From contig CM055097.1 of NCBI GenBank assembly GCA_029204225.1, positions 6,159,676 through 6,223,675 of the forward strand: a DNA stretch of 64,000 bases, read 5' to 3'. Positions 2,792-56,964 of this stretch are shown piece by piece. The notes below the pieces were generated by a model. That model ran no database searches, was not told where the DNA came from, and worked only from the letters and a program-made list of their open reading frames with translations. The translations under genes were made by a program, and so were the position numbers. Positions within the stretch are counted from its first letter, which is position 1; every line of letters starts with the position of its first letter. The DNA is from Diphasiastrum complanatum. Its lineage: Eukaryota > Streptophyta > Lycopodiopsida > Lycopodiales > Lycopodiaceae.

Positions 2792-3593
2792 AATAAAACG
2801 ACGTCTTTTATATGACATGACTAGATTTGTATCGCCACAATGAACCATCAAATGTACAATGACATGTACTTGTAACTTATACGTTAACTAGAATTTGTAA
2901 ATGGAGTGACGCATCAGGAATTTCAGGTGGTGTGATTGTGTGCTCCGTAGGCTATGAAATGAAGACACACTTCATTCTCACACCATCGAGAGAGAGAGAG
3001 TTTCTGTATTGTGAGATTGGAGAAGTGAATAGAGCGACGAAGGTTATCCTTTCTAATTTATGTTCTCCACACTGCTGAGTGTGAGTGATTTCGAATCTAC
3101 TAGCAATCTCGTGTGCATTACTTAAATCATTCTTTGTTCAACCAGTTAAATAGTTTTTACTGTAGTTTGCAATGTTTACGTAAAGTTGATCTAAAAAACT
3201 GTCTTCAAACTAACTTACCCATCTACATGAATACTTTGTATTCGACATTCGAGTAAAGTATCCCTTGGTGTAATTTTCCACAGTCACTGATAGAGAAGTA
3301 TGTATGCATGTGAAGTGCTAGTCCCTGCCGGAGGAACTGAGTTATTGATCTGTATTCGTGTTAGTAACGAAGATAATTGTTTCTAACATATTCGCGAACT
3401 ATTTGAGTTCTTTAACCATGACTGGACTTTAGTTGTTGAGGACTTCTGTTTAGAACACATTAGTTCAAAAATAAGATTAACTTTTTGTCTGTTCGTACGT
3501 TCTGCATCGAACATAACACAGATCCGTACTGACAACTTAATTAAATAGAGTGTTGTTCATTCGAGCTGCTCTGACAACATTTCATTTGCAGAA
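2792..3593. other. Unassigned spacer, possible old LTR debris
   Basis: No gene is seen. A short GA run lies near 2988-3002. The last five bases (CAGAA, 3589-3593) abut the outer element's 3' LTR and would be its left target duplication, but the matching right copy is lost. Confidence 0.3.
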
Positions 3594-4242
3594 TGTGAAA
3601 GATTTCAGATCCTTAAGACCCAATCTACTTGAATGATCTTTGGTTAGAAAGAGAAATACACTACCAATCTCACCAATGTAGAAAAATCAGCATCTACACA
3701 CAAAATGAGATGCAAACACCAGTAGAACTTGATCAAACTTGAATGAAATGAAAAAGTATTGTTGCTGTCCGTACAAAACTAGCAAGCTACTGTATTTCAC
3801 ACGTGTGGATCCAAAAATAACAAATATAGATCATTCTACACATAGAATTGCAAGCAATCACCAAGATAGTGCACCAATGGATAGTAGAACCCAAGAGAAC
3901 CATGTATAAGCATGAAATGAGATAGAGAAGAGAGAAGAATACTCTCTCCACTAGTTACATCGTTTTATAGCAGGTCCAAACCCTATTTGGCCACTTGGCT
4001 TTTCCACCAAAATGCTAACCCTACTAATTTTGGGTCTAGATTCAATGTACCCAACTATTCAAATTGAATCTACTCAAACTCGCACTCTAACTTTTCCACA
4101 CTTTCAAAAAATATTTACTCAAATGAAATTTAGACTAATGAACTTTGAAAAGTCAACCTCTAAGTCTAAAACAAGTTTTGGCCTCAATATGCCAAATATG
4201 AAAATATTGCAAAATGTGATTAAACTAGTTGAATCTTTCACA
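3594..4242 (-). repeat. 3' LTR of element E (649 bp)
   Basis: It aligns with 14442-14977 and is bounded by TG (3594) and CA (4242), as expected of an LTR. The palindrome CACACGTGTG is at 3798-3807. On the minus (sense) strand TTATAAAA-type promoter sequence lies upstream of the palindrome, which would therefore fall in the transcribed R/U5 part. Confidence 0.88.
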
Positions 4243-4252
4243 CTCCCTCTTC
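4243..4252 (-). promoter_or_regulatory. Polypurine tract of element E
   Basis: On the minus strand this reads GAAGAGGGAG directly against the LTR. The same tract adjoins the 3' LTR of element A (60901-60910). It primes plus-strand DNA synthesis in LTR elements. Confidence 0.75.
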
Positions 4253-5687
4253 AACTAGTTTTAGCATAGATTGATAACACTCCAAGTGAAGTCCTATGCT
4301 TCATGAACAAGTCTTTTCCCAATGCTTTGGTGAAGATATCAGCTACACATTCCCTTGAAGACACATGTTGAAGCTCCACCTCCTTTGCAATGACTTGCTC
4401 CCTCACAAAATGATATTGCATCTCAATATGCTTGCTCTTAGCATAGTTTTTGACCATAGAACTTTGATCCATCATAAGAATGATCTTCTTCTTGAGAATA
4501 GATCTCCTTTTAATGATCATGTAATGCTCAAAATAAAAACAACCATAATTGATATAGAGAATAGTGTCCACTTGGGATGCTTCACTATTTCTTACATCAA
4601 TTTTACATATCAAGATGTAACTAGAACGTGAAGAATCAAATAGGATGTGAATGAAATGATTCCACCATGCTTCCAACTCTGAAATCTCTAAAAAAATACA
4701 GTAAACAATCAATAAATGTGAGTGATCAACTTTTGCTTGTATGTCTCCTCCTCCTTTGTCCTTTGTTGCCATGTATCCACCATGATACTCCATGAATGAG
4801 CTTCCATCTCCATCTTGCCATAAGATACCATCATACCTTGATGACTTGATCATGAATGAGTGACATAATGAACATCCAATAGCTTCATTTCCATCAACAA
4901 AACCAGCCAAGAATGCTAGTACAAATCCAACATCAAAACAATGCTCACCAATGTAGCTAGTTTTACGATATCTTGACAATTTGCACACATCCACATGAAA
5001 ATGCTCAAACATGAGATAGAACAAGTAAAGTAGACTTGAACAACACTTCATTGCTGCTCCTTTTACCTTACTTGAGTCTTTAATATGCTGCAAAAATAGA
5101 TCCATAACATCTTTGCCAATTACCTCTCCTTTGATGCTCTTGACTAGCTCCAGATTGTCAACTTCCCTTTTGACTAGTCGAAGCACTTTGAGATCAACCT
5201 CTTGATCTTTAACTTGACCATCAAAGTAATTGAACAAACTTTGTTTTCTAGATCCATTACTTGATTTTATAGCAAGATAACATCCATCCACTTGCAAAGC
5301 TCCATGTACAAAAGAAGATCCTCCAAAAGATGTTCCACTCTTCATAAGAGATCGATACTCAAGATCCATTGCTTGGATCCACTCCACTTCTTTCCTTGCT
5401 TGATCTACACTTGTAGACTCATCCAAAGAGGTTAGGAAAGCAACATAATTTCCAAAAACTACTTGCTTACCCTTTTGATCATATGTGAGCCTTGAAGGTA
5501 CTTGTCTTTCTCTTGATGTTCTCCTTGGCTTTTGACTTGATGAAGGTCCATCATCACCACCATCCAAAGTAAGATCCTTCTCCTCAACATCAAGAATGTT
5601 AGATCCATTCACTCTACCATCAATCATGCTTGAAGAAACCTTTGGAATGTTCCCCTCATAAAAAATGACATCTCTACCAACAATCAC
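4251..5687 (-). pseudogene. Chimeric Copia frame: linker + ~288-residue unrelated insert + RNase H tail
   Basis: A single uninterrupted minus-strand frame of 478 codons. The first codon is GTG and merely marks the edge of the open frame; an upstream frameshift separates it from integrase. Residues 1-116 match the integrase/RT linker of element A (GRDVIF, SRLTYD, EEWIQAMDLE equivalents) and residues ~405-478 match the RNase H C-terminus (SKHIEMQYHFVREQV, ECVADIFTKALGKDLF). Between them every RT motif (LDVSNAFLNG, YVDD) and the RNase H D/E motifs are absent. Instead there are about 288 residues with no recognised similarity: a charged stretch (KVLRLVKREVDNLELVKSI), a hydrophobic stretch (SSLLYLFYLMFEHFHVDV) and AFLAGFVDGNEAIG. 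The last faintly recalls the LAGLIDADG motif, but the rest does not support that. A 1.4-kb open frame in AT-rich DNA argues that the insert came from coding sequence. Its function is unknown. Confidence 0.7.
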
Positions 5688-6112
5688 TTTATTAGTAGAA
5701 GGAATGTAAACCTTGTAGGTTTACTCACCTCAGTATATCCAACAAAAATACCTTTTCTTGAAGATGGATCCTCCTTGGTCCTATCATCAAGAGTAATGTT
5801 GACATAGCATGTGCATCCAAAGGTTCTTAGAAAGTTGACACTCGGCCTACTCTTGAATAGCATCTCAAAAGGTGTCCTTCCATCCAAAATAGCACTCGGC
5901 CACCTATTGCACAAGAAATTGGCACACAACAAAGCTTGATCCCAAAATGGTTTGTCAAGATTAGCACTTAACCTCATAGTTTTAGCACTTTCACATATTG
6001 TCCTATTCTTCCTTTCAGCCACTCCATTTTATTGTGGGGTCCTTGATGTTGTATACTCCCTCTTGATCCCATGCTCATCACAAAAGGCCTTGAACTTGTT
6101 AGATATGTACTC
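5688..6112 (-). pseudogene. Element E integrase, C-terminal part
   Basis: This continues E's integrase after the F insertion: GEYISNKFKAFCDEHGIK, then NGVAERKNRTICESAK, then FLRTFGCTCYVNITLDD and EDPSSRKGIFVGYTEVSK. The catalytic Glu (in GVAER) is present. A TAA stop (6029-6031, minus strand) replaces a Gln codon just before NGVAERKNR. A one-base deletion near 5717 shifts the frame before the chimeric segment. It would not give a functional integrase. Confidence 0.85.
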
Positions 6113-6117
6113 ACCAC
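6113..6117. repeat. Left target-site duplication of element F (ACCAC)
   Basis: ACCAC here equals 12192-12196 on the other side of F. The duplicated site lies in E's integrase codons for GDNGG. Confidence 0.9.
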
Positions 6118-6799
6118 TATAAAAATTACAGCAAATAAGGATCCTAAAACACTTGAAATGATGAGGGAAACAATAGATTATGATTTCATAAGATTAGCAC
6201 AAGTTGAACCATCAAAATCCATCAAAAATCTATGCTTGAACCTCACTAAATGGCCCAAATCCTTGAAGAAGGCTTCACACGTGTGAAAGTACGGCCTCCC
6301 ACAGTCTGAGTACTGTACACCAGACCTACATTCAATCCTATAATCATTAGTAATCACAAGTACTCAAACAATTATGAACATAGAGAGCAATTGCACCATT
6401 ATGAGAGAAAAAACATGAAATTGCTTGATTGACTTTGGTGAGATATCATCACCTATATATACATGATCCATCACGGTTTTGGGCAGGTATGAGTAGCCCT
6501 AAACCTATCCCTAATGCTAATTTTGGTGGATCTTTCATCCCTACCAAGTTAGGGTTGGAATCTTGGAGATCCCTCAACAATGCAAAAATTACCAAAAATA
6601 GCTCCTATTTTTTCTCCCTTGTATCTAAGCATAATTTGGACTCATTCCAAAGGTTCTAACACTTAGGTATACTTGAGAACATCCTTATGAATGGAATCCT
6701 ATGCTATTTGGCACGTGTGACAAGCCACATCATGACCATCTAACTATTTACAAGTCATATGACCAAAACTAGTCAAGCTAGAATTGTGAATTTTTAACA
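6118..6799 (-). repeat. 3' LTR of element F (682 bp)
   Basis: It matches 11510-12191 with about three differences. One difference is terminal: the element's outermost CA has become TA (plus strand TATAAAAA instead of TGTAAAAA at 6118). Because integration needs CA, that change happened after insertion. The palindrome CACACGTGTG is at 6276-6285. Confidence 0.92.
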
Positions 6800-6813
6800 C
6801 TCCTCCTCACTAT

Positions 6814-7947
6814 CTAGCTTGGTTCAATCATTGCTTTACTAATCACTCCAAGTGATGATCTGAACTTCATAAAAGGTGTCTTTTGAAGTGGTTTAGTAAG
6901 TAGATCAGCTACACATTCATTGCTTGGAACATGCTCCAAAGCAATCTCCTTGGCTTGCACCATTTCTCTCACAAAGTGATGGCATATCTCAATGTGCTTA
7001 GATCTTGCATGGAAGATTGGGTTAGATGCAAGGTGTTGGGCTGATATATTGTCATTGTAGATGATTGGTGCCTCCTCTGAATCCATGATCTTTAGTTCCA
7101 CCAATAATCTCTTGATCCAAAGTACCTCCTTTGTAGTGGTTGTCAAAGCTTTGTACTCGGCCTCGGTTGAAGATAGAGATATAGTTTCTTGCTTTTTTGA
7201 AAGCCATGAAACCACACCTTCTCCTATGAAAGTTGAATAGGCACTTGTTGATTTCCTATCCCTCTTGTCCCCTGCAAAATCTGAATCACTAAATGCATGA
7301 AGGTTAATCACATCTCCTCTATATAGAATCCCAAAATCCAATGTACCCGAGATGTATCTTAGAATCCTCTTAGCCTTTTTCCAATGGATATTCAATGGCT
7401 TTTGCATGGATTGGCTCAACCTACATACACTAAAGCTAAGATCTAGTCTAGTTATAGTGATCCACATTAAGGAACCTATAAGTTGCCTAAACAAAGTGAT
7501 GTCCATGAAGGATCTTTCATCATCTTCATTTGGCACTTTTACATCTTGCTCCATTGGTGTGTCAACACTTTTGCATACTTCCATCTTAAACTTCTTCAAA
7601 AGACTTTGAGCATAGTTTACTTGACTTATAAAGATAAAATCAGACCCTCTAAGTACTTCTATGCCTAAGATGAAGTGAAGACACCCTAGATCTACCATCT
7701 TGAACTCTAAGGATAGATCTATCTTGATTTTTTCAATACCATCAACACTATTTCCACTAATGATGATGTCATCTACATAAATGAGTAAAAGTACAATACC
7801 AACATCATCAAACTTAATGTAAAGAGTGGGATCATATTCACTTTGAACAAAAGAAAGTGAAATAAGATAGCAATGTAGTCTTGAATTCCAAGATCTCGAG
7901 GCTTGCTTCAAGCCATAGATGCTTCTTTGGAGATGGCATACTTTGTT
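6814..7947 (-). pseudogene. Element F pol, RT C-terminus and RNase H
   Basis: This frame continues RT after the in-frame TAG at 7948-7950; the first ATG at 7911 is internal and not a true start. It contains SIYGLKQASRSW, the RT active site LIYVDDIIISG, ITRLDLSFSVCRLSQSMQ (usually TRPDLS), and a complete Copia RNase H: HAFSDSDFAGD, ISLSSTEAEYKAL and YNDNISAQHLA. It ends with LLTKPLQKTPFMKFRSSLGV, typical of the Copia C-terminus. Apart from the upstream lesions the domain looks intact. Confidence 0.88.
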
Positions 7948-9130
7948 CTACATTCCATGCTTGATGAACCCTTGTGGCTGCTCCATATAGATATCCTCTT
8001 CCAAAAAACCATTCAAGAAAGAATTAGAGACATCCATTTGACATAGAATCCATACAAAATGTGATGCAAGTGCAATGATTAGTCTTATTGTGACCATCTT
8101 GGCCACGTTTGCAAAAGGTTCCTCATAGTCTATCCCTCTCTCTTGAGCATAACCTTTTGCAACTAATCTTGCTTTATGTTTGTTAACACTCCCATTTGCA
8201 TTCAACTTAAGCTTGAAGACCCACTTGCATCCTATTACATTCCTTTGAGGTCTCTCAACAAGCAACCAAGTTTCATTCTCAATCAAGGCATCATACTCAT
8301 CCAACATAGCTTTATACCATTCTTTGGAGTTCAATGCATCTTCAACATTAGACGGTTCTTCAAAACTAGATAAAGCATAAGAAGTGGATGATATACCCTC
8401 AACTTGCTGTCCTTTGCCTTGATATGTGAGCCTTGATGGCTCCACTTTTGCCCTTGAAGATCTCCTTGGTGTGATAGGTGGGTTTGGTGCTTGCTCCTCC
8501 ATGAGCTCCTCCTCAAAACCAAGATCTTGCTCCTCGGCCATCTTATTCTTGATTGTTGGAGCACTTGAGCCTTCTTCAAGCATATGCATATGATGTTCAT
8601 CAAAGATGACATCCCTTGAAACAACAAATTTGTTCAAGGATGGGAGATAGACTTTGTAGCCCTTGCTTGAGCTTCCATATCCAAGCATGATCCCTCTTGT
8701 GGAAGATGGATCCTCCTTGGTTCTTGTTTCCAATGGCACATGCACATAACATATACACCCAAAAACTTTCAAGTGATTAAGATTGGGTTTCTTTCCATAC
8801 AACATCTCATATGGAGTTTTGCCTTCAATTGCTTTGCAAGACACCCTATTCATCAAGTAGTTTGCACATACAAGAGACTCACCCCAAAAGGATTTGGGCA
8901 AACAAGCATCTAATCTTAAAGCCTTAGAACATTCACATAATGTTCTATTCCTTCTTTCAGCAACTCCATTTTGTTGAGGAGTGTAAGGACAAGAAGTCTC
9001 TTTCTTGATCCCTTCCTCCTCACAAAAGGCCTTGAACTCATTGGAGATGAATTCTCCACCATTGTCACTTCTAAGAATCTTGATGCTATGATTATGATGC
9101 TTTTCCACAAACAACTTGAACTTTACAAAA
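7948..9130 (-). pseudogene. Element F pol, integrase core to RT N-terminus
   Basis: The frame contains the integrase second Asp and Glu (ILRSDNGGEFIS ... QQNGVAERRNRTLCE), then VFGCICYVHVPLETRTKEDPSS, a basic/acidic linker (PRRSSRAKVEPSRLTY) and the RT start (CKWVFKLKLNANGSVNKHK, QMDVSNSFLNGFLEED). It terminates at a TAG where element A reads on into the RT finger region. A few sites deviate from consensus (EEPFANVAKM for EETFAPVAKM). An out-of-frame deletion of roughly 80-100 bp has removed the stretch that would encode TFIDD...DVF upstream. Confidence 0.85.
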
Positions 9131-10699
9131 GTAACCTCCATTATATTTGGTGCTAGCAATGTGCACATCCGAGTGTATGAGTTCAAGAGGATGAGATGAC
9201 TTTGTGATGGAGTTAGGAAACACCTTCTTATGTGCCTTGGATAAGGCACAAGCTTCACAAACCTTGTCTTCCTTCCCAATAGACCTTGGTAGGCCTAAAG
9301 CATACTCCTCCTTGATCATAGCCTCCATGGAACCCAAGTTGACATGTCCAAGTCTTTTGTGCCATAAAGTAAAGGTAGATATCTTGCTCTTCTCGGCCAA
9401 CATGACAACATTAGTATCCACAAATGCATCCAGCTTATAAAGTTTGCCAAGTCTAGTGCCCTTAGCCACTATCTTACCCTTCTTCTTGATGAAACATTCA
9501 TTTGAAGCAAAGTCAACATTGAAACCATTGTCTACCATTTGGCCAACACTTAGTAGATTCTTTGTTATTGTAGGAATGTACAAAACACCTTCTATGTTGA
9601 TCTTTTTGGAAGATCCTAAGCAAAGGGGAATGCTACCAACTCCTTCAATCTTACAAGCTTCATCATTTGCTGTATAGATAGACTTTATAGGTCCATCATA
9701 AGATAAGAGAGAAGAGAAAACCTCCCTTTTACTAGTCATGTGTGAACTAGCACCCGAGTCAATCCACCAAGGATCTTCTCCTTTGAAGCTTGTTGAAGAA
9801 AATATGGACATCATGAGAGAGTCCTCATGTGAACTCTCCTCCTCCTCCTCTTTGCTCATGTTGGCTTGGCTTTGATCTTGCTTCCTCTTGAAGCATTCCG
9901 AGGCATAATGCCCCATCTTGCTACAATAGTAGCACTTCACCTTTGATTTGTCCTTCTTGACTTTGGTGGTTGATGGAGATGCCTTTGGGGGTCCTTCTTG
10001 ATCCTCAAGCTTTGTAGACTTCTTGAATGTTGATCCTTTGCCTTTGGACTTGCCTTTGCCTTTGGTGAAGAGAGCTTGGTCATCTCCACCTTGGATGGAA
10101 AGCCTATCCATCCTCTCTTGCATTTGGCTCCTTCTTGATTCCTCGGCCATGAGCGTGCCTTGGAGTTCTTCAAGTATGGGTAGCTTACCCATAATTGCAT
10201 ATCCCTGAACCAAATTGTCAAATTCAAAGCTTAGTCCATTCAATATGAGTTGAACAAGCTCTTCATCCTTGATAGGTTCACCTATAAAGGCTAGCTCTTT
10301 GTTCAATTCTTTTACTCTTAGGACAAAAGTATGTGCACTCTCTCCTTTCTTTTGATAGCTTCTATAGATTTGATTCTTCAAAGCTAACATTCTAGTTTGG
10401 TTCTTGGATTCATAGACCTTTTGCAAAGTCTCCCAAGCATCTTGAGCTGAAGTGCAATCTCCTACCTCTCTTAAGAGTTCATTTGCAACATTCATTTTTA
10501 TGCAATGTAGTGCAACATTGCACCTCTTGATGTATTTGGCTTTTTCTTGAGGATGAATAGGTTCACCCTCCTTACCATTTACAATTTCCATCAGATCTTG
10601 TATGATCATGATAGATTCCATTCTAACTTTCCATATGGAATAGTTAGTTTTGTTGAGCCTTTCATTAGTATCCAAAAGATATGCATTTATAGATGCCAT
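9092..10699 (-). pseudogene. Element F gag, protease and integrase N-terminus
   Basis: It starts at a real ATG (10699). Order: Copia gag/UBN2-type domain (NKTNYSIWKVRMESIM, AWETLQKVYESK), a Lys-rich linker, a zinc knuckle CYYCSKMGHYASEC (CX2CX4HX4C), the retropepsin motif DPWWIDSGASSHM, the pre-integrase HHCC finger (LWHKRLGHVN ... CEACALSKAHK), and the first integrase Asp in LIHSDVH. Soon after that the deletion near 9130 throws the frame into a stop at 9092. Gag and protease alone would still be translatable. Confidence 0.88.
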
Positions 10700-11497
10700 C
10701 TAGTCTCCTAATCAAGGACTTGACACAAATGAAGGTTACTTCTATTGATTTGATTGAAGGTCTACCTTATCCCACTTCTTAGGGACCTGAAAATATAAGT
10801 AATAGACTTCCTATAAAGATCTAAGAATGATCTCTAACAAAATCAAATCATAGAATACTAGAAACAATGCACTTGCTTGATTGAAGTAGACAATACTAGT
10901 AGAATTGCCCCTCTTTCTATAAAGAACATTAAAGCTTCCAAATGATCTGATCAAGAGTGAATTTCAGAAACCTAATATACTTCCAAAATCACTTGTAAAA
11001 GATCTAAATGGAACTTAATGAGGATGCAACACAATCTACTATCCAATCACAAGCAAAAAATGATCAAAATTGATGAAAAATTGATCTAATTTGGTGCATA
11101 AGTCAAGCAATGGTTGGACTGAACCTAAATCACTTTAGGAGGTGCCTACTACACCTTAGAACAGCCTTGAAGAGTCCCCAAAACTCTGATCTTCCCTCTC
11201 CTTGAATGCTAGAAAGCCTTCTCTATGAAATCACCTCCAAAACTCGCTTAGAAATCAATGCTTGGAGCAAGCAAAACTTGCTATCTTGGTAATGTGAATT
11301 GAATTCAACTTTGCCTCTGGTTTAGACACCTAAACACCTGCAAATGAAGTCACACAACACCAATCTCCAATGTATTTGACTCACTTTGAGTTCTAGAATC
11401 AATACCAGATGCTAAGATCCAATCTACACAAGATTTAGATCAAAAATTGTGATCAAATCGAATGCAAACCAAGGATTTAGCTCATTTCAGCCTTTAG
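10700..11497 (-). other. Element F untranslated leader
   Basis: About 800 bp between the PBS and the gag ATG, with no significant open frame. It is the packaging leader by position. Confidence 0.7.
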
Positions 11498-11509
11498 GCT
11501 CTGATACCA
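11498..11509 (-). promoter_or_regulatory. Primer binding site of element F
   Basis: The minus strand reads TGGTATCAGAGC directly after the 5' LTR, the standard plant Copia PBS complementary to initiator tRNA-Met. Confidence 0.9.
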
Positions 11510-12191
11510 TGTAAAAATTACAGCAAATAAGGATCCTAAAACACTTGAAATGATGAGGGAAACAATAGATTATGATTTCATAAGATTAGCACAAGTTGAA
11601 CCATCAAAATCCATCAAAAATCTATGCTTGAACCTCACTAAATGGCCCAAATCCTTGAAGAAGGCTTCACACGTGTGAAAGTACGGCCTCCCACAGTCTG
11701 AGTACTGTACACCAGACCTACATTCAATCCTATAATCATTAGTAATCACAAGTACTCAAACAATTATGAACATAGAGAGCAATTGCACCATTATGAGAGA
11801 AAAAACATGAAATTGCTTGATTGATTTTGGTGAGATATCATCACCTATATATACATGATCCATCACGGTTTTGGGCAGGTATGAGTAGCCCTAAACCTAT
11901 CCCTAATGCTAATTTTGGTGGATCTTTCATCCCTACCAAGTTAGGGTTGGAATCTTGGAGATCCCTCAACAATGCAAAAATTACCAAAAATAGCTCCTAT
12001 TTTTTCTCCCTTGTATCTAAGCATAATTTGGACTCATTCCAAAGGTTCTAACACTTAGGTCTACTTGAGAACATCCTTATGAATGGAATCCTATGCTATT
12101 TGGCACGTGTGACAAGCCACATCATGACCATCTAACTATTTACAAGTCATATGACCAAAACTAGTCAAGCTAGAATTGTGAATTTTTAACA
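11510..12191 (-). repeat. 5' LTR of element F (682 bp)
   Basis: TG...CA ends are intact. A TATATATA stretch near 11845-11853 (minus strand) is a plausible TATA box, and CACACGTGTG at 11668-11677 lies downstream of it in the sense direction. Confidence 0.92.
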
Positions 12192-12412
12192 ACCACCATT
12201 GTCACCTCTCAAGCACTTGATCTTTGTGGAAAATTGGTTCTCCCTTGCATTCTTGAACTTGACAAAGACATCATACACTTCGTCCTTGCTCTTTAGTAGA
12301 TAGATCCAACAAAATCTACTAAAATCATCAATGAATCTTACATACATCTTAGCTCCACTATTGCTAATTGTAGTAAATCCATGAATATCCGAATGTACAA
12401 GTTGAAAAGACT
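12192..12412 (-). pseudogene. Element E integrase, N-terminal core
   Basis: The minus strand encodes a Copia integrase core start: HSDIHG-like, then FIDDFSRFCWIYLLKSKDEVYD and KIKCLRGDNGG, cut exactly there by F (TSD 12192-12196). A frameshift and stop near 12413 separate it from the preceding frame. The SDNGG Ser is changed to Gly. Confidence 0.8.
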
Positions 12413-13333
12413 TTATAGATTAGAAATAGATCTAGTATAAGGTAGTCTATGTGACTTAGACAAAGCACAAGACTCACAAGCATGCTTGACATTACTTAAA
12501 GAAATTGGAAGACCAATTACAACCTTCTTCCTTGCCATTACCTCCAATGACTTGAAGTTGAGGTGTCCCATCCTTTTGTGCCAAACCTCTTGAATAGAAA
12601 TTTGTTCCCTTGCAACACATCCAACATCAAGTTTGAACAACTTCCCTTGCCTTTTACCTTTTCCAATCAAGACATCCTTCCTTTTGATCAAACAAGCATC
12701 TCCATCAAACTCCACCTTGAGGCCTTTACTTAGCATTTGACTCACACTAAGTAGATTATTGGTAATAGATGGAATAAACAAGACATCCTCCAAATGAACA
12801 TTTCTATTTGTAGAGAGAGAAATAGGAATTGTGCCAATCCCTTTGATTGCACACTCACCATCATTGGCCGTGTAGATCACCCTCCTGTCATCTCCATATG
12901 CCAACAAATAAGTGAAATACTCTTTGTGAAAGGTCATGTGTGAACTTGCTCCACTATCAATCCACCAAGGATCTAGATCTCCATCATTATCAAGCATACA
13001 TGAAGACATCACAAAAGCATCATCATTTACATCTTGAACATCCAAACCATCCTCATCAAGAGTAAGATTTCCCTGTTTGTCTCCTTGATCTCTCTTCTTC
13101 TTGTAGCACTCACTTGCAAAGTGTCCTTTGATGCCACAATAGAAGCACTTGAGCTTTGAACTATCCTTCTTTTTTCCACTTGAAAAAACATCCACTTGAT
13201 CTTGCCTTTTAGACCACTTATTTTTGGTTTTGCCCTTTGTGAACATAGCATCCTCTTGAAGTGTCGATGTAGATCCACCTCTTGCTTGAAGCCTATATTC
13301 CTCATTGATCAAGATCTCTTGAAGATCCATCAA
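12413..13333 (-). pseudogene. Element E gag C-terminus, protease and HHCC finger
   Basis: One open frame whose 5' edge is a frameshift, not a start. It contains a zinc knuckle CFYCGIKGHFASEC, the retropepsin site WWIDSGASSHM, TANDGECAIKGIGTIPISLS, and the pre-integrase finger VWHKRMGHLNFKSL ... CESCALSKSHRLPYTRSIS. Its closest visible relative is element A. It ends in a stop just before the first integrase Asp. Confidence 0.85.
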
Positions 13334-13856
13334 CTTGGCAAAGTCTTTTGAATAGCAATACTTTGAACAATATTAGAATGAGCATCCAACAAGCCATTAA
13401 GAATCACTTGAATAAGCTCTCCTTCCTTAATGCTTTCATCAATGCAAGCCAACTCACTATTCAATGCTTTCATTCTCAAAACAAAAGTACTTGGACTTTC
13501 TTCATTCTTTTGCAAACAAGAAAAGATTTGTCTTCTTAGAGTTAACACTCTAGAAGTAGACTTGGATTCATAAAGCTTCTTCAATGAATTCCAAGCTTCC
13601 AAAGATGATGTGCACTTACCAACTTCCTTGAGCAGTTCATTGGTAACATTCATCTTTATCATGTGTAGAGCCTCCTTGGCCCTCTTTTCATACCTCAATT
13701 GATCTTGTTGTGTTGCTGGTCTCTCCTCCAAACTACAACAATATCCAAAACATCATTGATCTCAAGAAGTGACTCCATCCTCACTTTCCACAATGAATAG
13801 TTACTTGAGGTAAGTCTATCATTGGCTTCCAACATGACTCCAATTGAGATTGCCAT
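13334..13856 (-). pseudogene. Element E gag N-terminus
   Basis: A good ATG is at 13856, followed by a gag N-terminus like that of element A (ANDRLTSSNYSLWKVRMESL). A one-base loss near 13735 moves the reading frame. The rest (RAKEALHMIKMNVTNELLKEVG, RVLTLRRQIFSCLQK) is in the next frame and stops near 13330. The Copia gag capsid region is recognisable but not translatable in one piece. Confidence 0.82.
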
Positions 13857-14429
13857 GTAGCAATGACCTGATCTTCTCTTTCAACCTGCTTCAATGCACA
13901 AAGCACTCCTTTGAACAACAACAAATGCTTTCAAAAGGAATCACCAAGATTTGAAACTATCTCACAAATTCTCTTCTAGCACTTATCCAAGCAAATCAAC
14001 ACATAGAATCATGGAATCTTGATCAACCTATGATCTATCCTCAATCTAATGACTTTTGCCAATTCCTAAGATTGAAACACACTCAAATGAAGTCCAACAA
14101 CCTCACTATCTAGAGATCCAATCAAAATTAGAGTTTTGACAAAATCACAAAAAATTGACTATTCCAAATCTACATGCAAATGCTAAAAATTTGATATGCA
14201 ATCTATAAGCCACCACTTAGGCTGATCCAATGATCAAAAAATCGGCCAAATCCAGTATGTGACTTCAAAAATCGGAATTGATCAAGTATATTGACCTATT
14301 TAGTGTTTTGATCTACAAAAACAAAAAACTCGATTTTGATGTAGAAACCTCTCTAGCATGCTCTAGACTTCATCTCTTCACCAAATCATTGATAGATCTG
14401 ATTTCCTCCTTCATAACCTGAAACACAAG
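13857..14429 (-). other. Element E untranslated leader
   Basis: 573 bp between PBS and gag ATG, without open frames. Confidence 0.65.
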
Positions 14430-14441
14430 CTCTGATACCAT
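14430..14441 (-). promoter_or_regulatory. Primer binding site of element E
   Basis: The minus strand reads TGGTATCAGAGC, complementary to initiator tRNA-Met, directly next to the LTR. Confidence 0.9.
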
Positions 14442-14977
14442 GTAAAAGATTTCAAATCCTTCAAATCCAATCTACTTGAATGATCTTTGGTTAGAAAGAG
14501 AAATACACTACCAATCTCACCAATGTAGAAAAATCAGCATCTACACACAATATGAGATGCAAACACAATAGAACTTGATCAAACTTGAATGAAATGAAAA
14601 AGTACTGTTGCTATCCGTACAAAACCAGCAAGCTACTATATTTCACACGTGTGGATCCAAAAATAACAAATATAGATCATTCTACACATAGAATTGCAAA
14701 CAATCACCAAGATAGTGCACCAATGGATAGTAGAACCCAAGAGAACCATGTATAAGCATAAAATGAGATAGAGAAGAGAGAAGAATACTCTCTCCACGAG
14801 TTACATCCTTTTATAACAGGTCCAAACCCTATTTGGCCACTTGGCTTTCCCACCAAAATGCTAACCCTACTAATTTTGGGATTCAATGTACCCAACTCTT
14901 CAAATTGAATCTACTCAAACTCGCATTCTAACTTTTCCACACTTTCAAAAAATGTTTATTCAAATGAAATTTAGACT
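14442..14977 (-). repeat. Truncated 5' LTR of element E
   Basis: It aligns with 3594-4242 for about 540 bp and then stops at 14977; the outer ~110 bp of U3 are missing. It carries CACACGTGTG at 14644-14653 and a sense TTATAAAAGG-type TATA near 14811. Gypsy sequence follows immediately. Confidence 0.85.
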
Positions 14978-15022
14978 GACCATTCTTGGCCAAGTGATGT
15001 CGAGAAGTTATTTAAGGTAACT

Positions 15023-15888
15023 ATGAGAAGCAAAAGCTCCTCAAAGCCTGACACGAAAGTATCTTCAAAGAAGAGGAGAAAGTACTTGAAGAAGAAATCT
15101 TCGAACAAGTCAATAACGAAAGAAGATCTTAAAGGTGATCCTGATTATGATTGTGATGCAGCCAAGTTATTCTCAAAGGACATTTCTATAGAAGCGAAAG
15201 ACATTGTTAATACTGAATTGCAGATAGCCGCTGCAGAAAAGAAAGTCATCTTTGAGGAAGGAGACATGGAAATCTCGAAGACAAAACTTTCGGAGGCCAC
15301 TATTGATAAGCCTATCTCGAAAGCGAAGACGAAAGACTATGATATAGTGACTGATATTGGTTCTCTTCATCCCGATATAACTTTTGAACAATTGTTGGCA
15401 GATAACAATTATTACCATAAGCAATTAAAAGGTCTCTCTGCTCCTAAGAAGAAGAAACCAATTTCTCTGTCGGATGTTGGCATATGAGATCTTGGATCAC
15501 CAAAAATTGATGTCACAATTGCTGGATGTCTACTCGAAAAAGTATCGATTGACTCAGGTTTGAGTGTCAACATAATTATGAAGACACTGCCCATGCCTTG
15601 GGTATGACCAATATTCAACCAACCCAAAGAAATATCAAGTTGGGTGATTCGACACGAAGAAAGCCTGTTGGTGAATTGAAGGATGTGACTGTATACATAC
15701 AAGACAAGTCTTTTACAATGAACTTCATTATTATCAAACCACTTGGTTTGTCATCTTACTCTATTTTAATTGGACAACCTTGGCTTTATCAGGCTAATGC
15801 AAGTGTTCACTGGAAGCCTAGAGAACTGAGATTTCAGACTGGCGAGAAAAATAATCATAGTAAGCCAGAAGAACAAATTATTACCTAG
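15023..15888 (+). pseudogene. Gypsy H gag end and retropepsin
   Basis: The frame from 15023 is Lys-rich, then contains DIVTDIGSLHPDITFEQLLA and, after an in-frame TGA at 15485-15487, the protease core VSIDSGLSVNIIMK (catalytic Asp codon at 15551). A frameshift near 15585 moves to the next frame: LGMTNIQPTQRNIKLGD, then MNFIIIKPLGLSSYSILIG and QPWLYQANA. This is the usual plant Gypsy RVP layout with the flap and GQPWL-type ending. The frame edges are not genuine starts. Confidence 0.8.
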
Positions 15889-15918
15889 AGTCGTGACAGA
15901 TATGAGGGCAAAACTCCT

Positions 15919-16860
15919 GTGTCTTATGAGGATTCTTCTTATGATCTTGATATATTCTCTAATGCAGTAAACATCGAGGTAAATTATTTCGAATGCTATG
16001 AGGATAATGATTCATCAGATGATGAAAAAGAATTTTTCGATGTATGCAATGCAGATATTGATGTAAGTGAATCAGAAGCTGCAGACCAGAATTCTAAAAA
16101 TTTTGATTTAGTTGATGAAGATATAGATGACAAATTTGATGAATTTGAACAAGAATTTGGTGATAAAGACCAGAGTGACAACAAGAATAAATCTATGCAG
16201 TCAGTCATACGTGAAATTCATGGCCATACACAGGCAAGTATGACGGAAGGTATAATTTTGTCCGATTCTATAGAGCTAATTGAACTTGCAGCTGGAAAAT
16301 TTGTGCATGTTCTTAAGTCTCTTGGAGAGACAATATTAGCGGAATTTGCCAAGTTATTGAAATAGTACCAAGATGTATTTGCATGGTTGCTCGAAGATTT
16401 AAAGGGAATACCTACTGAATTTGATGAGCACCACATTGATCTTAAAGAAAATGTTGTACCTGTCCGACAGAGGCAATCTCATCTCAATCCAAAAGTACTC
16501 GTTGATGGTAAAATATGAACTCAACAAGCACCTTAAAGCAAGTATTATCTATCTCGTCTTAAGTAGTGAATGGGGGTCTCCCATTGTTGTAGTTCCAAAA
16601 AAGAAAACTGACAAGATTCGAATTTGTCAAGATTTTAGGAAGCTGAATGCTGCTACAAAGAAAGATTACCACCCATTACCCTCACAGATTCCATTCTAGA
16701 CCAGGTCACTGGACAAGAACGTTACAGTTTTTGTGATGGTTTCTTTGGTTACAATCAAGTTGGAGTAAGGAAGGAGGACTGACCGAAGACTAATTTTACT
16801 ACTGATTGGGACACATATGCTTATTGAGCCCAGCGTTTAAAGAATCAATTTTTTTTTTGC
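15919..16860 (+). pseudogene. Gypsy H acidic linker and reverse transcriptase N-terminus
   Basis: A strongly acidic linker (Asp/Glu-rich, ~140 residues) leads through an in-frame TAG (16363-16365) into YQDVFAWLLEDLKGIP and VVPVRQRQSHLNPKV, the classic start of plant Gypsy RT. After a frameshift come SEWGSPIVVVPKKKTDKIR and ICQDFRKLNAATKKDYHPLP. Next, in another frame, are remnants of the YSFCDGFFGYNQV region. RT is lost before the catalytic DD, where unrelated sequence starts near 16861. Confidence 0.82.
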
Positions 16861-32337: not shown

Positions 32338-33006
32338 CTAAAAAGTGATGTCCTCAAAGGATCTTTCATCACCTTTATTAGGATCTTTTACAATTTGCTC
32401 CATTGGAGTATCTATGCTCTTAGAATTTTCCATATGGAATTTTTTCAACATAGAGTGAGCATATCTAGATTGGCATATAAAGACATGATTTTCATAAAAA
32501 TCAATTTCTAGGCCTAGGATGTAATGCATCTCTCCTAGATCTTGCATTTTAAAGTCACATCCAAGTGCTAGCCTGGTTTCATCAACTAGCTTGATACACC
32601 TTCCACAAAGAATAATGTCATCAACATAAATTAGAAGAATGACAATATTGCTATCAACAAACTTTAGATACATGGAAGGATCATAGTCACTAAGAGTAAA
32701 TCCTAGTGAGATAAGAAAAGAATTAAGTCTTGAATACCATGATCTTGGTGCTTGCTTGAGTCCATAAAGACTTTTGAAGAGCAAGCACACTTTGGACTCA
32801 TCCTTGATGAATCCTTGAGGTTGTTCCATATAGATCTCCTCCTCAAGATAACCATTTAGAAAAGCATTGGATACATCTAATTGGAACACCTTCCACTTGA
32901 AAAAACAAGCAAGAGAAATAAGAATTCTTATTGTCACCATCTTTGCAATGGGTGCAAAGGTCTCCTCATAATCAAGACCATGATTTGAGCAAATCCTTTG
33001 GCACAT
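32338..33006 (-). pseudogene. Element C reverse transcriptase
   Basis: A frame set off from upstream pol by a one-base deletion near 32980 and from RNase H by a two-base deletion near 32341. It contains FQLDVSNAFLNGYLEEEIYM, SLYGLKQAPRSWYSRLNSF, the active site LIYVDDIILCG, and MQDLGEMHYILGLEI. Its residues are nearly those of B, so it was a normal RT before the lesions. Confidence 0.88.
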
Positions 33007-34697
33007 AATCTTGCTTTATGCTTGTTGATGGTGCCATCATGATTGAACTTGATCCGAAATACCCACTTGCAACCAATCACATGCTTGTTGGATGGAGGAT
33101 CCACAAGCTCCCAAGTATTGTTGGTGATCAATGCATCATACTCTTGCTTCATGGCATCATACCACTCCTTGGTATTGAGTGCCTCTTGTACATTCTTTGG
33201 CTCTTCATGAGAGACATAAAAAACATAATTAGTGGAATCAAGATCCACTTGTTTGCCTTTGTCAACATATGAGAGCCTCTTAGGCTCGGATCTATCTCTC
33301 ATGGATCTTCTTGGTGAGAAAATCCGAGGAGAGTCTTCTTCAAATATCGACCCCATCACATCATGATTGTCTTCAAAATCAATAATTGATGATGCATCCA
33401 TAGATTTCTTGATCTCGGCCTTTTCAAAAGATGAGTGTTGATCTTCATGAAAGACAACATCTCTACTTTCAATAACTTGAGAATTAGAGAGTATAAAGAC
33501 TCTATAGGCCTTCTTGGTGGATGAGTATCCAACCATGATCCCTTTGCATGCACTAGGATCTTCCTTCTTCCTTGTTTCCAAGGGAATATGGACAAAGCAT
33601 AAGCATCCAAAAACTCTAAGGTGATCAACCTTAGGCTTCTTCAAAAATAAGATTTCATATGGTGACTTTCCTCCAAGAGCTATATGTGGGAGCCTATTGC
33701 AAAGATAATTTGCACAATTAATGGCTTCTCCCCAAACATCTTTGGGCAAAGATGCCTCAATTCTCATAGATTTTGCACATTCACATAGAGATCTATTATT
33801 TCTCTCGGCCACTCCATTTTGAGATGGAGAGTAGGCACAAGAAAACTCTCTTTTAATGCCTTCAAGCTCACAAAAGTCTTGAAATTTATTGGAGATATAT
33901 TCATCACCTTCATCACTTCTAAGAGCTTTAATCTTGAATGAGAATTGCTTCTCTACATAAGCTTTGAAAATAAGGAAATGATCAAACACCATAGATTTTG
34001 AAGCAAGAAGATATATCCAAGTGAATCTTGTGTAATCATCAATGAAAGTAACAAAACAAGTGGCTCCTCCCTTGCTTGTAGTTGATGAGAAATGCACATC
34101 CAAGTGGATTAACTCCAAAGGATGCTTGCTTTTGATAGAAGATCTTGTAAATGGCTTTTTGTGAGATTTAGCAATAGCACAAGCCTCACAAGGCTTGATC
34201 TTCTTGGAGAATGACTTTGGCAAGCCAATAGCTTTGGATTCTTTGATCATAGAGAGCATGGATTTGTAGTTGGGATGTCCCAACCTCCTATGCCATAATT
34301 CCTCCATAGAGAGCTTGTTCACAAGAGCAACATTACAAGCATTCACATACTCATTTGGATCTAGTTTATAGATGCCACCAAATCTAGATCCTAATGCAAG
34401 TATCTCATCATTCTTCTTGATAGTGCAAGTATCAACATTGAATTTTACATCAAGGCCATTATCAAGCAATTGGCCAACATTAATAAGATTCTTGGTAAGC
34501 TTAGGTACATAAAGAACTTTAGAGAGAGAAAGAACTTTAGAGGATGAAAGCTTCAAGGGAATGTTCCCTATGCCTTCAATAGGACATTCGAAATCATTTG
34601 TAGTGTATATTGATTTCTTGACTCCATCATAAGGTGCAATAGAAGAGAAAGAGTCCTTGGAGCTACACATATGTGAAGAGGCTCCACTATCAATATA
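32934..34697 (-). pseudogene. Element C protease end, integrase and RT start
   Basis: It begins after a TGG-to-TGA change (34698-34700) in the Trp just before YIDSGASSH. It then runs open through the HHCC finger (LWHRRLGHPNYKSM ... CEACAIAKSHK), integrase (LIHLDVHF with Leu for Ser, LRSDEGDEYISN where relatives have GGGEY, SQNGVAERNNRSLCE), the linker (SPRRSMRDRSEPKRLSYVDK) and the first RT residues. The TGA separates gag from pol. Confidence 0.87.
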
Positions 34698-35651
34698 TCA
34701 TAGGCCGTCCTTCTTGAAAGGAGTAGATGAGAAACTAGAGACCATAAGAGATCCCTCTCCATCACTTGCAATAGTGTCTTCCTTCTCATTGGTAATGTTG
34801 GCTTGCTTGAGTTGATTCTTCTTCTTGAAGAAATTGGTGGCATAATGACCTTTCTTGCCACAGTAAAAGCACTTGATCTTCCTCTTCTTCTTGAGCTTGG
34901 ATGATGAAGCATTAGAGGAATCATCTTCCTCCTCATCTTTGTCTTTGGATTTGACTTTGTCCTTGCTTGAGGATTGTTGATGTTGGTTCTTGCTCCTCTC
35001 TTTGTGCTTATCCTTGGCAAAAAGAGCTTTGCCATCATTATGAGTGAGAGAAAGCTTGTCCATCCTCAAGAGCTTATACTCTTGTCTTGATTCTTCTGAA
35101 ATTAGCACACTTTGGAGAGCCTCCAAACTTGGTAGCTCCTCCTTAATGGCATAGGAATGGACAAGATTATCAAATTCAGTTCTCAAGCCATTGAGAATGA
35201 CTTGAACTAGCTCATTTTGATTGATGGAATCACCAATACAAGCAAGTTCTCTATGAATATCTTTTACTCTCAAAACATAACTAGATGCACTCTCATCACT
35301 CTTTTGGGTACTTTGAAAGATTTGATTCCTAAGAGTGAGAAGCCTAGAGGTATTCTTAGCCTCATAGATAGTCTTGAGACAATCCCAAGCTTCTTTGGCT
35401 GTCGTACAAGTACCTATCTCCCTCAATATCTCATTAGAGACATTCATCTTAATGTAGTGGAGAGCCATCCTAGCTCTCTTTTTGTATTTTTCGACCTCTT
35501 GAAGAACTTGTGGTTCTTCTTCAAGGCCAAGAACTATGTCCATCACGTCTTGAAGGATCAAGATGGACTCCATCCTCATTTTCCAAATTGAATAGTTTGA
35601 AGTGGTCAATCTTTCACTTGGTTCCAACAAGGATGAACCCATTGATGACAT
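34698..35651 (-). CDS. gag: Element C gag (Copia capsid/nucleocapsid)
   Basis: The first ATG is at 35651 (the open frame extends upstream without ATG). About 317 residues: gag capsid-like region (NYSIWKMRMESILILQDVMD, AWDCLKTIYEAKNTSRLLTL), a Ser/Lys/Asp/Glu-rich linker, then CFYCGKKGHYATNF, a zinc knuckle whose last Cys is Phe. It stops at the TGA just before the protease active site. It could yield gag alone, with nucleic-acid binding probably impaired by the missing Cys. Confidence 0.75.
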   Translation of the reverse strand: MSSMGSSLLEPSERLTTSNYSIWKMRMESILILQDVMDIVLGLEEEPQVLQEVEKYKKRARMALHYIKMNVSNEILREIGTCTTAKEAWDCLKTIYEAKNTSRLLTLRNQIFQSTQKSDESASSYVLRVKDIHRELACIGDSINQNELVQVILNGLRTEFDNLVHSYAIKEELPSLEALQSVLISEESRQEYKLLRMDKLSLTHNDGKALFAKDKHKERSKNQHQQSSSKDKVKSKDKDEEEDDSSNASSSKLKKKRKIKCFYCGKKGHYATNFFKKKNQLKQANITNEKEDTIASDGEGSLMVSSFSSTPFKKDGL

Positions 35652-36395
35652 TTGAAGTGAAGAAAACTCAGATGATGAACAATAAATGTTGTTACACACT
35701 TTCAATAGGATCCAATAATTGAGTACTATCTCCTCCTATGAAAGATCTTACAACAATTTGTGAATTGATTCTCACTAGCTACACAAATCTCTCTAAAACA
35801 AGATCTATTTCACATCAAATGATGGAGTATAGGCAAAGTTAGGATCAAACACTCTTAGCACGTGTGAAATACTCTAAGAAACCAAATTTGACTCAAATAC
35901 AATGATATTGCATGAAACAAAATGGCTAGGATCTCAAAACAGTGCCTAGATCACATATAGATGAGATTGGCAAGCATACAGTTGTGATTTTGGATAAACC
36001 AAGCAATCTCTTGACCAAACCAAATGTGTCCACCCAGGTCTAGGTGCCCTACCTAACCCTCTTCAAAAGCTTATAACTTTTGATTGGCTCAACCAAATGG
36101 AATGAAACTAATTGCATCAAAAACTAGACAAAAATAGCTTCAAAACAAGCTATCAAGCAAGATAAATGGATCAAGCATGAGAGAGAACTTCCAAACTGAA
36201 ATTGGATGTTTCTCACACGTGTCTAAGCACCTGATTCTGTACAGTACCAGTTCAGACCCAATCAATGTCCTTTTGATCTCTTTTGATCCAAGATTGAACA
36301 AGATAGCTAGGAAAATGGGCCTTGACAACTTCTAGCTCAAGATTGATGAAAATTTTTCACTTAGATGGATCAACATGCATGGTAACCTTAGGTAG
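35652..36395 (-). other. Element C untranslated leader
   Basis: 744 bp between PBS and gag, colinear with 46237-46980 of element B. No open frame is supported. Confidence 0.7.
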
Positions 36396-46236: not shown

Positions 46237-46980
46237 CTACCTAAGGTTACCATGCATTTTGATCCATCTAAGTGAAAAATGTTCATCAATCTTGAGCTAA
46301 AAATTGTCAAGGCCCATTTTCCTAGCTATCTTGTTCAATCTTGGATCAAAAGAGATCAAAAGGACATTGATTGGGTCTGACCTGGTACTGTACGGAATCA
46401 GGTGCTCAGACACGTGTGAGGAACATCCAATTTCAGTTTGGAAGTTCTCTCTCATGTTTGATCCATTTATCTTGCTTGATAGCTTGTTTTGAAGCTATTT
46501 TTGTCTAGTTTCTGTTGCAATCAGTTTCATTCCATTTGGTTGAGCCAATTAAAAGTTATAAGCTTTTGAAGAGGGTTAGGTAGGGCACCTAGACCTGGGT
46601 GGACACATTTGGTTTGGTCAAGAGATTGCTTGGTTGATCCAAAATCACAGTTGTATGCTTGCCAATCTCATCTATATGTGATCTAGGCACTGTTTTGAGA
46701 TCTTAGCCATTTTGTTTCATGCAATATCATTGTATTTGAGTCAAATTTGGTTTCTTAGAGTATTTCACACGTGCTAAGAGTGTTGGATCCTAACTTTGCC
46801 TATACTCCATCATTTGATGTGAAATAGATCTTGTTTTAGAAAGATTTGTGTAGCTAGTGAGAATCAATTCACAAATTGTTGTAAGATCTTTCATAGGAGG
46901 AGATAGTACTCAATTATTGGATCCTATTGAAAGTGTGTAACAACATTTATTGTTCATCATCTGAGTTTTCTTCACTTCAA
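46237..46980 (+). other. Element B untranslated leader
   Basis: 744 bp, no supported frame. The open frame reaches upstream of the first ATG (to 46927) but only with non-ATG codons. Confidence 0.7.
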
Positions 46981-56367: not shown

Positions 56368-56964
56368 ATTAGGCGGCCAAATGTGCAGGTTTTGCCAGAT
56401 TTAGAAGAGATTTGTGGGCGAGTTTGCTTTTGTAGCATTCCAATCAAGTTTCTAGCTAAAAATCTTGTTGATTTATGTGTAGAAATTGGATCTTTGTGAT
56501 CAAAACATCATTTGTATGCATTTCAATTGAAGTAGGGCGAATTCCCTCTGTACTTATCAGAATAAGGAGACAAAAATTGTTTTGGAAAGAGGGAGATGCA
56601 AGATCCAACAAGATCCTATTAGTTTTCCATTCTAGCATATAGTTTTTTGATTCAATTTCTTGCTTCTTCATGTCAAAAACTTCAAAATTGATGTAACCCT
56701 CTGATTTTCAGTTTGCTGAATGATTCAAGAGTGTATTTCAATCTTAGGAGTGAGGGAAAAGCAAGTATATTGAGGTTTGGTCTTGGTTTGATCAAGAAAT
56801 CATAAAACTAGTGGCTAAAATTAAGGAAAAAGTGAGGAAAAGAGAGAAAAAGTAAGGTTTTAGGTTCCAAATCTTTGTGATTTCTTCTTGTGTTTCATTT
56901 GTTGATTCAAGAGAGTGCTTAGTGCATTGGAACAGGTCAAAGATCAGAGATCAATCATTGCAAC
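56368..56964 (+). other. Element A untranslated leader
   Basis: 597 bp between PBS and the gag-pol ATG; no supported frame. Confidence 0.75.

What the first reader, a model, noticed from the sequence alone, without database searches (positions are those of the whole stretch)
4251..5687. Copia polyprotein in which RT and most of RNase H are replaced by an unknown in-frame segment
Both flanks align with the intact relative A (its residues ~715-824 and ~1240-1310), but the middle ~288 residues (about 4460-5340) match no Copia domain I know, and the whole 478-codon frame has no stop. In DNA this AT-rich, ~290 random codons would be expected to contain well over ten stops, and the rest of E does carry several lesions. 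The segment therefore likely came from coding DNA (host transcript or another element) and may have been kept open by recent origin or selection. A non-autonomous Copia carrying cargo in place of RT would be unusual.
Basis: partly seen in the sequence, partly recalled or inferred. Interest (0 to 1): 0.75.

Follow-up and report, generated by a model that had tools for sequence, protein, structure and literature searches.

The report
RT-less Copia carrying a shared ORF
A jumping gene that lost its copying enzyme carries an unidentified stretch in that enzyme's place, has spread to about two thousand places in this genome, keeps the stretch almost free of inherited stop signals while its protein sequence drifts, and shares part of it with a second such family.

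Summary
In detail: 4251-5720 (minus) is one 489-codon frame of integrase tail, about 300 codons without a Copia domain, and RNase H tail. It is not a one-off. The 5' junction occurs at 2,076 places. E is a truncated, nested-into member of a non-autonomous Copia family (649-bp LTRs, gag-protease-integrase) whose RT was replaced. The in-frame RNase H tail is secondary, made by a ~390-bp deletion; longer copies have 58 more codons in the segment. Part of the segment (about 66 residues) is homologous to an uncharacterised ORF that a second, diverged Copia-type family carries directly after its integrase start; so the donor was probably another element. Among copies, inherited gag-protease changes show purifying selection. 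The segment shows none on amino acids (omega about 1.0), yet inherited stops are depleted only in its coding frame (7 against 21 expected, P = 3e-4; other frames as expected). Best reading: a trans-mobilised element supplying Gag/protease, with an RT-replacing segment that must stay translatable. Whether its protein does anything is open. New variant of a known kind; source and function of the ORF unknown.

The parts
4251..5720 (-). Open frame of 489 codons: integrase SH3/linker end, RT-replacing segment, RNase H tail
5349..5720 (-). Copia integrase C-terminal (SH3-like) end and linker
4444..5348 (-). Segment that replaces RT; copies L153-L156 have 55-59 more codons here, in frame
4990..5190 (-). 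Part homologous to the uncharacterised ORF of L036 (coordinates approximate, transferred from L154)
4837..4840 (-). Place of the in-frame difference (58 codons against L155) from longer-segment copies
5272..5334 (-). Weak trace of a second Copia linker at the start of the segment
4553..4608 (-). Weak trace of Copia RT C-terminal DNA, in another reading frame
4433..4443 (-). Deletion junction (short repeat, TGCTAAGAGCA in E) that fuses the segment to the RNase H tail in E's subtype
4251..4432 (-). RNase H C-terminal remnant
   Evidence: (like copies)
3594..4242 (-). 3' LTR of E, 649 bp (TGTGAAAGAT...ATCTTTCACA)
14441..14977 (-). 5' LTR of E, truncated in U3; 95% identical to the 3' LTR
14429..14440 (-). 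Primer-binding site TGGTATCAGAGC (initiator Met tRNA type; assignment recalled)
12197..13860 (-). gag, protease and first part of integrase of E, with lesions
5720..6112 (-). Second part of integrase of E, up to the nested insertion
6118..12191 (-). Nested LTR retrotransposon that splits E's integrase; target duplication ACCAC at 6113-6117 and 12192-12196

Best explanation
E is a decayed member of a high-copy, non-autonomous Copia family. Its polyprotein keeps gag, protease and integrase but ends in a segment that took the place of RT. Part of the segment is a diverged relative of an uncharacterised ORF that another Copia-type family carries after its integrase start. Shown: structure, shared junctions, copy number, that partial homology, purifying selection on gag-protease, no amino-acid constraint on the segment during the spread of the family, depletion of inherited stops in its frame. 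Inferred: the RNA is packaged by its own (or shared) Gag and copied by RT supplied in trans from RT-bearing Copia relatives. The replacement arose by template switching or recombination with the other family. Stops are purged because an early stop lowers the element's output in cis, most likely through nonsense-mediated decay of its RNA or loss of translation through the frame. E's RNase H fusion is a secondary deletion product.
For: Domains in one natural 1072-codon frame (L007): gag, zinc knuckle (just below cut-off), protease-region barrel, integrase, SH3, no RVT_2; relative A has RVT_2 at E 1e-75. Both LTRs in 8 of 10 fetched stretches, with target duplications readable at L011 and L012. 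RT-bearing relative L033 (84% identical to L007 in integrase and linker, 88% just upstream, 78% further up) carries an ordinary RT where L007 has the segment. 2,076 places with the 5' junction, 900 with the short and 1,020 with the long 3' junction, 243 with an RT-bearing linker motif. Segment against the L036 ORF: protein score 80 and 79 for L154 and L155, 0 of 500 shuffles as high, A pieces 27-41. In 28 matched copies, changes shared by 3 or more: gag-protease 14 synonymous to 7 replacement (expected 6.3 to 13.5, P = 6e-4); segment 18 to 55 with 0 stops (expected 17.2, 51.3, 4.5). In 85 copies, stops among changes shared by 2 or more: 7 of 327 against 21.1 expected (P = 2.6e-4); singletons 29 against 29.4; other forward frames 21 against 24.8 and 33 against 33.3. 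The depletion holds in DNA-ranked copies alone (3 against 8.5) and in half-samples.
Against: No autonomous partner with the same LTR was found among 6 RT-bearing loci. Mobilisation in trans and the decay mechanism are not tested. The stop test treats variants as independent and includes recurrent mutation; all copies come from one genome and were picked by similarity to E. Shared stops include segment codons 84, 87 and 94, in 4, 5 and 2 of 85 copies, so some stop-bearing lineages may have spread. In the 28-copy subset singleton stops were also few (6 against 12.6), unlike the full set. E's own segment, being shorter and mutated, matches the L036 ORF only at 59, reached by 3 of 500 shuffles. 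Integrase shows only a weak signal (omega 0.7-0.86, not significant).
Confidence: 0.55

Rival explanations
1. The segment encodes a fast-evolving accessory protein (for example a counter-defence or Gag-acting factor) that RT-less Copia families acquire and keep; stops are purged because the product matters, while residues turn over.
For: Stops depleted with replacements at the neutral rate. A related ORF sits after the integrase start in a second family, junction spanned by 40 of 40 scored matches (1,472 candidates) at 91-100%, in frames of up to 723 codons. The size differences seen between subtypes keep the frame. In the aligned stretch third codon positions differ most: identical 26 of 33, 22 of 32 and 18 of 31 at positions 1, 2 and 3 (small).
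Against: Omega is 1.0, not above; shared changes are spread evenly (chi-square P = 0.94) and no more conservative than expected by BLOSUM62 (z = 0.65). No known domain in either family. Single-sequence AlphaFold gave pLDDT 34, uninformative without an alignment.
Confidence: 0.25
2. A host-gene exon captured directly by this element (Bs1-like transduction), now neutral; the frame is open only because capture and burst were recent.
For: The open frame is far beyond chance; capture of host sequence by plant LTR elements is known (PMC13317346, passages seen).
Against: A relative of part of the segment lies in another element family, which fits element-to-element transfer better. No homologue in Pfam, NCBIfam, PHROGs, PDB, viral contigs or plasmids; no plant protein library was available. 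Drift alone does not give the depletion of inherited stops.
Confidence: 0.08
3. The segment is largely a scrambled, diverged remnant of Copia pol.
For: Traces at both ends, same strand and collinear, against linker and RT C-terminus of A (E 6e-4 each, lenient scoring; 8e-5 for the second with L154). Whole-segment alignment with A's RT in sense beats all 200 mononucleotide shuffles for three copies and all 200 codon shuffles for E (661 against at most 608) and L007 (669 against at most 607, z 4.7), while gag and integrase of L033 give z of -0.2 and -0.3. RT and segment are of similar length (888 and 905 bp).
Against: With L033's RT, a closer relative, the score falls inside the shuffles (636, largest 640); unrelated windows of A reach 611 against 627-645 for RT windows; with stricter gap costs 31 is reached by shuffles (largest 32). 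A DNA profile of eight RT regions scores the traces at only -1.1 to 2.9 bits, and one of 200 shuffles reached 2.1. The 3' trace is in another frame. Relatives that are 84% identical in integrase keep ordinary RT.
Confidence: 0.1

Closest known systems
Non-autonomous Athila families of Arabidopsis (PMC2410132; abstract and passages seen)
   Same: Pol-less elements whose gag stays under purifying selection; whole families thought to be mobilised in trans; new families made by recombination between families
   Different: Athila is Gypsy (recalled), not Copia; there pol is absent, here integrase stays and RT is replaced by an open segment unconstrained in sequence
TR-GAG elements (PMC8704663; abstract and passages seen)
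   Same: LTR elements coding for Gag without RT; one was seen to transpose
   Different: A single Gag ORF; here gag, protease, integrase and a further ~300-360 codons in one frame
Maize Bs1 (review PMC13317346, passages seen; original papers not held)
   Same: LTR element with captured sequence inside its coding region; lack of its own RT is recalled
   Different: Three host genes are identified as sources in Bs1; low copy number (recalled); here the only relative found is in another element family and places number about 2,000
BARE-2 and Veju template-switch products (PMC13317346, passages seen)
   Same: New LTR element families made by switching between templates
   Different: BARE-2's change is in the LTR; Veju is a TRIM that gained unknown DNA; here pol is altered in frame

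Membership tests
Copia (Ty1-type) LTR retrotransposon | gag-protease-integrase order with integrase upstream of the RT position | tested here: met
   Pfam order on L007 ORF and on A
Copia (Ty1-type) LTR retrotransposon | LTRs with TG..CA ends, PBS, PPT, 5-bp target duplication | tested here: met
   8 of 10 fetched stretches have both LTRs; duplications read at L011 and L012
Autonomous Copia | Copia RT (RVT_2) and RNase H in the polyprotein frame | tested here: not met
   no RVT_2 in L007 or P0001; RNase H behind a stop or in another frame in long copies, truncated in short ones
Trans-mobilised non-autonomous element | An autonomous partner with matching LTR/PBS | tested here: inconclusive
   0 of 6 RT-bearing loci show E's LTR; these loci are fragmentary
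Gag-conserving non-autonomous families (Athila type) | gag under purifying selection in RT-less copies | tested here: met
   (gag-protease, P = 6e-4)
TR-GAG | Single ORF coding only Gag | tested here: not met
   integrase domains and segment in the same frame
Bs1-type host-gene transduction | Captured segment traceable to a host gene | tested here: inconclusive
   no host homologue found; no plant protein library, own-genome searches filled by element copies

The most novel reading that the evidence does not exclude
An uncharacterised ORF is a transferable module of RT-less Copia families: at least two families in this genome carry related versions in the place of pol, passed between families by template switching. 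In E's family selection keeps it translatable while its residues turn over, either because reading through it protects the RNA in cis, or because it encodes a fast-evolving helper protein.
Probability: 0.35. Interest if true: 0.7.

Novelty: new variant of a known kind. Interest (0 to 1): 0.5.

Why it matters
RT-less elements are usually thought to lose coding capacity or to keep Gag alone. Here a family found at about two thousand places keeps a very long frame, of which one part is constrained in sequence (gag-protease) and another only in openness, and the second part is related to an unknown ORF in another family. That separates selection on protein from selection on being translated, and points to an overlooked accessory ORF that travels between non-autonomous retrotransposons.

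Tried and rejected
Segment as simply diverged RT: kept as a rival, with its evidence told there. Inverted, reversed or complemented RT: nothing for E (43, 163 and 200 of 200 shuffles reach the score); for the reverse complement 4 and 2 of 200 shuffles reach it in L007 and L012, z 1.1 against L033; not pursued. Protein homology by Pfam, NCBIfam, PHROGs, PDB, viral contigs and plasmids: nothing convincing; an NCBIfam hit to a DNA polymerase III delta model (E 0.0013, 18 bits, cut-off 656) appeared in L154 only and is taken as chance. Rfam on 3500-15100: no match. Single-sequence AlphaFold: pLDDT 34, not searched further. Finding a source exon in the own genome: the lists are filled by family copies. 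A first selection test on 28 rows gave the same neutral picture for the segment; its flanks were spoiled by truncated copies and are not used. Copies of the second family could not be fetched: the ten region calls were used and the letter sum was nearly spent.

Full report
What is there. On the minus strand, 4251-5720 is a stop-free frame of 489 codons. Its start is the integrase SH3-like end and linker of a Copia polyprotein (window 5516-5331 against A residues 780-841). Its end is the RNase H tail. The 861 bp between have 13, 25, 22, 19 and 24 stops in the other frames; a Markov model expects 18.9 and 0 of 20,000 simulated runs were open. No other Pfam domain and no PDB sequence matches.

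The element. E has a 649-bp 3' LTR at 3594-4242 and a 5' LTR at 14441-14977 cut off in U3; the two are 95% identical. The primer-binding site is TGGTATCAGAGC (initiator Met type recalled). A second LTR element, 6118-12191, with target duplication ACCAC, splits E's integrase.

A family, not a single copy. The segment DNA finds 41 matches at 93-100%, with 40 of 5,806 candidates scored. The protein finds 136 matches, 136 of 16,815 candidates scored. The 5' junction pattern occurs at 2,076 places (up to 3 mismatches; reversed control 0). Ten stretches of about 6.9 kb were fetched. Eight of the ten show both LTRs, 93.6-99.0% identical over 343-647 bp (some cut by the end of the stretch); target duplications can be read at L011 and L012. 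L004 and L011 have internal deletions. L007 has gag, zinc knuckle, protease-region barrel, integrase, SH3 and segment in one 1072-codon frame; A has RVT_2 at E 1e-75 where L007 has none. Frames of up to 1,255 codons are reported around the longer form of the segment.

Later deletions explain E's form. Of six copies examined, four (L003, L004, L007, L009) keep RNase H, 74-83% identical to A. In L004 and L009 it lies whole in a frame other than the segment's, and the long frame stops just before it. In L003 it is in other frames too; in L007 part of it is back in the segment's frame, but behind that stop. The four longer copies L153-L156 show the same stop and frame change. Two of the six (L005, L012) lack about 390 bp between TGCTAGGAGCA-type repeats, which puts the RNase H tail in frame as in E. 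Genome-wide the short 3' junction occurs 900 times and the long one 1,020 times (up to 2 mismatches). Some listed junction pairs lie about 1,073 bp apart instead of about 900; four such copies were fetched. Between fixed motifs E has 299 codons, L153-L156 have 354, 358, 357 and 357, with 1, 0, 0 and 1 stops.

Relatives with RT. 243 places match a linker motif that runs into RT. Six were fetched. The closest, L033, is 84% identical to L007 in integrase and linker, 88% just upstream and 78% further up, and its RT is about 82% identical to A. Its 888 bp of RT stand where L007 has 905 bp of segment. E's LTR is in none of the six.

A relative of the segment in another family. In L036 (turned so that its linker motif is on the plus strand) a gag-protease-integrase start, 44-56% identical to A in pieces, is followed by open stretches at 1120-1644, 1708-2175 and 2317-2526. 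The segment of L154 matches the second one in DNA at 250-368 (67%, E 6e-7) and the DNA just behind at 549-731 (61%, E 6e-4), collinear and in the same phase; 46.8 bits exceeds all 300 codon shuffles (made from L155), whereas the 41.1 bits of L155 is reached by 2 of 300. As protein, L154 and L155 score 80 and 79, in L154 over about 66 residues (29% identity), 0 of 500 shuffles as high; E scores 59, reached by 3 of 500; pieces of A score 27-41; the first and third stretches give no clear signal. The L036 ORF is itself widespread: 150 matches to the second stretch (2,791 candidates, 71-100% identity) and 151 to the first (7,533 candidates). At C13:37929562-37930602 both lie in phase in a reported 453-codon frame, and frames of up to 723 codons occur. 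A 451-bp query across the integrase-ORF junction finds 40 of 40 scored matches (1,472 candidates) covering at least 1-447, at 91-100%, so the junction is a family feature. No domain is known for it. The window and the other loci in hand have no further copy that tblastn finds. The likeliest origin of E's segment is thus a diverged version of this ORF, gained from another Copia-type family; how the rest of the segment arose is open. Whether the second family lacks RT throughout was not tested. Two weak traces at the segment's ends resemble Copia linker and RT.

Selection. Changes were split into those seen in one copy (mostly after insertion) and shared ones (mostly inherited), and compared with the expectation from the mutation spectrum of the same class. 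88 copies carry the segment; 55 have no stop and 40 have neither stop nor indel; 85 remain after removing near-duplicates. Two fetched copies with partial segments (L014, L015) were left out. Segment, shared by 2 or more: 78 synonymous (76.2 expected), 242 replacement (229.7), 7 stops (21.1; P = 2.6e-4). Singletons: 29 stops against 29.4. The other two forward frames: 21 against 24.8 and 33 against 33.3. Shared changes are even along the segment (P = 0.94) and not conservative. The depletion remains in the 26 copies ranked by DNA (3 against 8.5; other frames 10 against 10.3 and 19 against 13.8), in the other 59 (5 against 15.7), in 100 half-samples (mean ratio 0.23, largest 0.41) and without CpG transitions (7 against 21.1).

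Contrast with gag-protease. Gag regions of 36 copies were fetched; 8 of 36 gave no match and were dropped. In 28 copies with both regions, singletons are equally dense (0.25 and 0.26 per bp). Changes shared by 3 or more differ: gag-protease 14 synonymous to 7 replacement (expected 6.3 to 13.5, P = 6e-4), segment 18 to 55 with 0 stops (expected 17.2, 51.3, 4.5). In this subset the segment's singletons also had few stops (6 against 12.6, P = 0.03). Gag-protease replacements, though fewer, are not more conservative by BLOSUM62 (z = 0.3). Integrase, with 20 more regions, gives omega 0.7-0.86, not significant, and 1 stop against 4.8 (P = 0.046).

How it likely works. RT-less copies that spread this far need RT from elsewhere; RT-bearing Copia relatives are present. 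The constraint on gag and protease says that their products matter to the element that encodes them, as reported for pol-less Athila families (PMC2410132, abstract and passages). During the family's spread the segment's residues did not matter measurably, but staying open did. The simplest cause is that an early stop harms the RNA or its translation in cis, for instance by nonsense-mediated decay; this is inferred. The related ORF in a second family makes a fast-evolving helper protein a serious rival.

Status. The kinds are known (non-autonomous LTR elements, gag-conserving families, template-switch chimeras). The combination found here did not appear in the listings of my searches of the held library; most subscription papers are not held, including the Bs1 originals.

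Noticed in passing
L036 (rc coordinates 1120-2526; places): A second high-copy Copia-type family with an uncharacterised ORF directly after the integrase start; diverse copies, long frames, no known domain.
   Followed up: partly
window 56923-60915: Intact Copia ORF of 1,330 codons (element A) with RT; E's LTR has no match near it.
   Followed up: partly
window 46897-50382 and 32338-35735: Two copies of another Copia family on opposite strands; one keeps an 1,161-codon frame, the other is split into several.
   Followed up: no
window 14978-16365: E's 5' LTR stops abruptly at 14977 against a different sequence with open frames rich in lysine, serine and acidic residues on the plus strand.
   Followed up: no
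L030 (G000:C3:54675400-54678500): Two E-type segments in opposite orientation, 15 bp apart.
   Followed up: no
L003-L030, L037-L096: Stops recur at segment codons 84 and 87 in 4 and 5 of 85 copies; recurrent mutation or stop-bearing lineages that still spread.
   Followed up: partly
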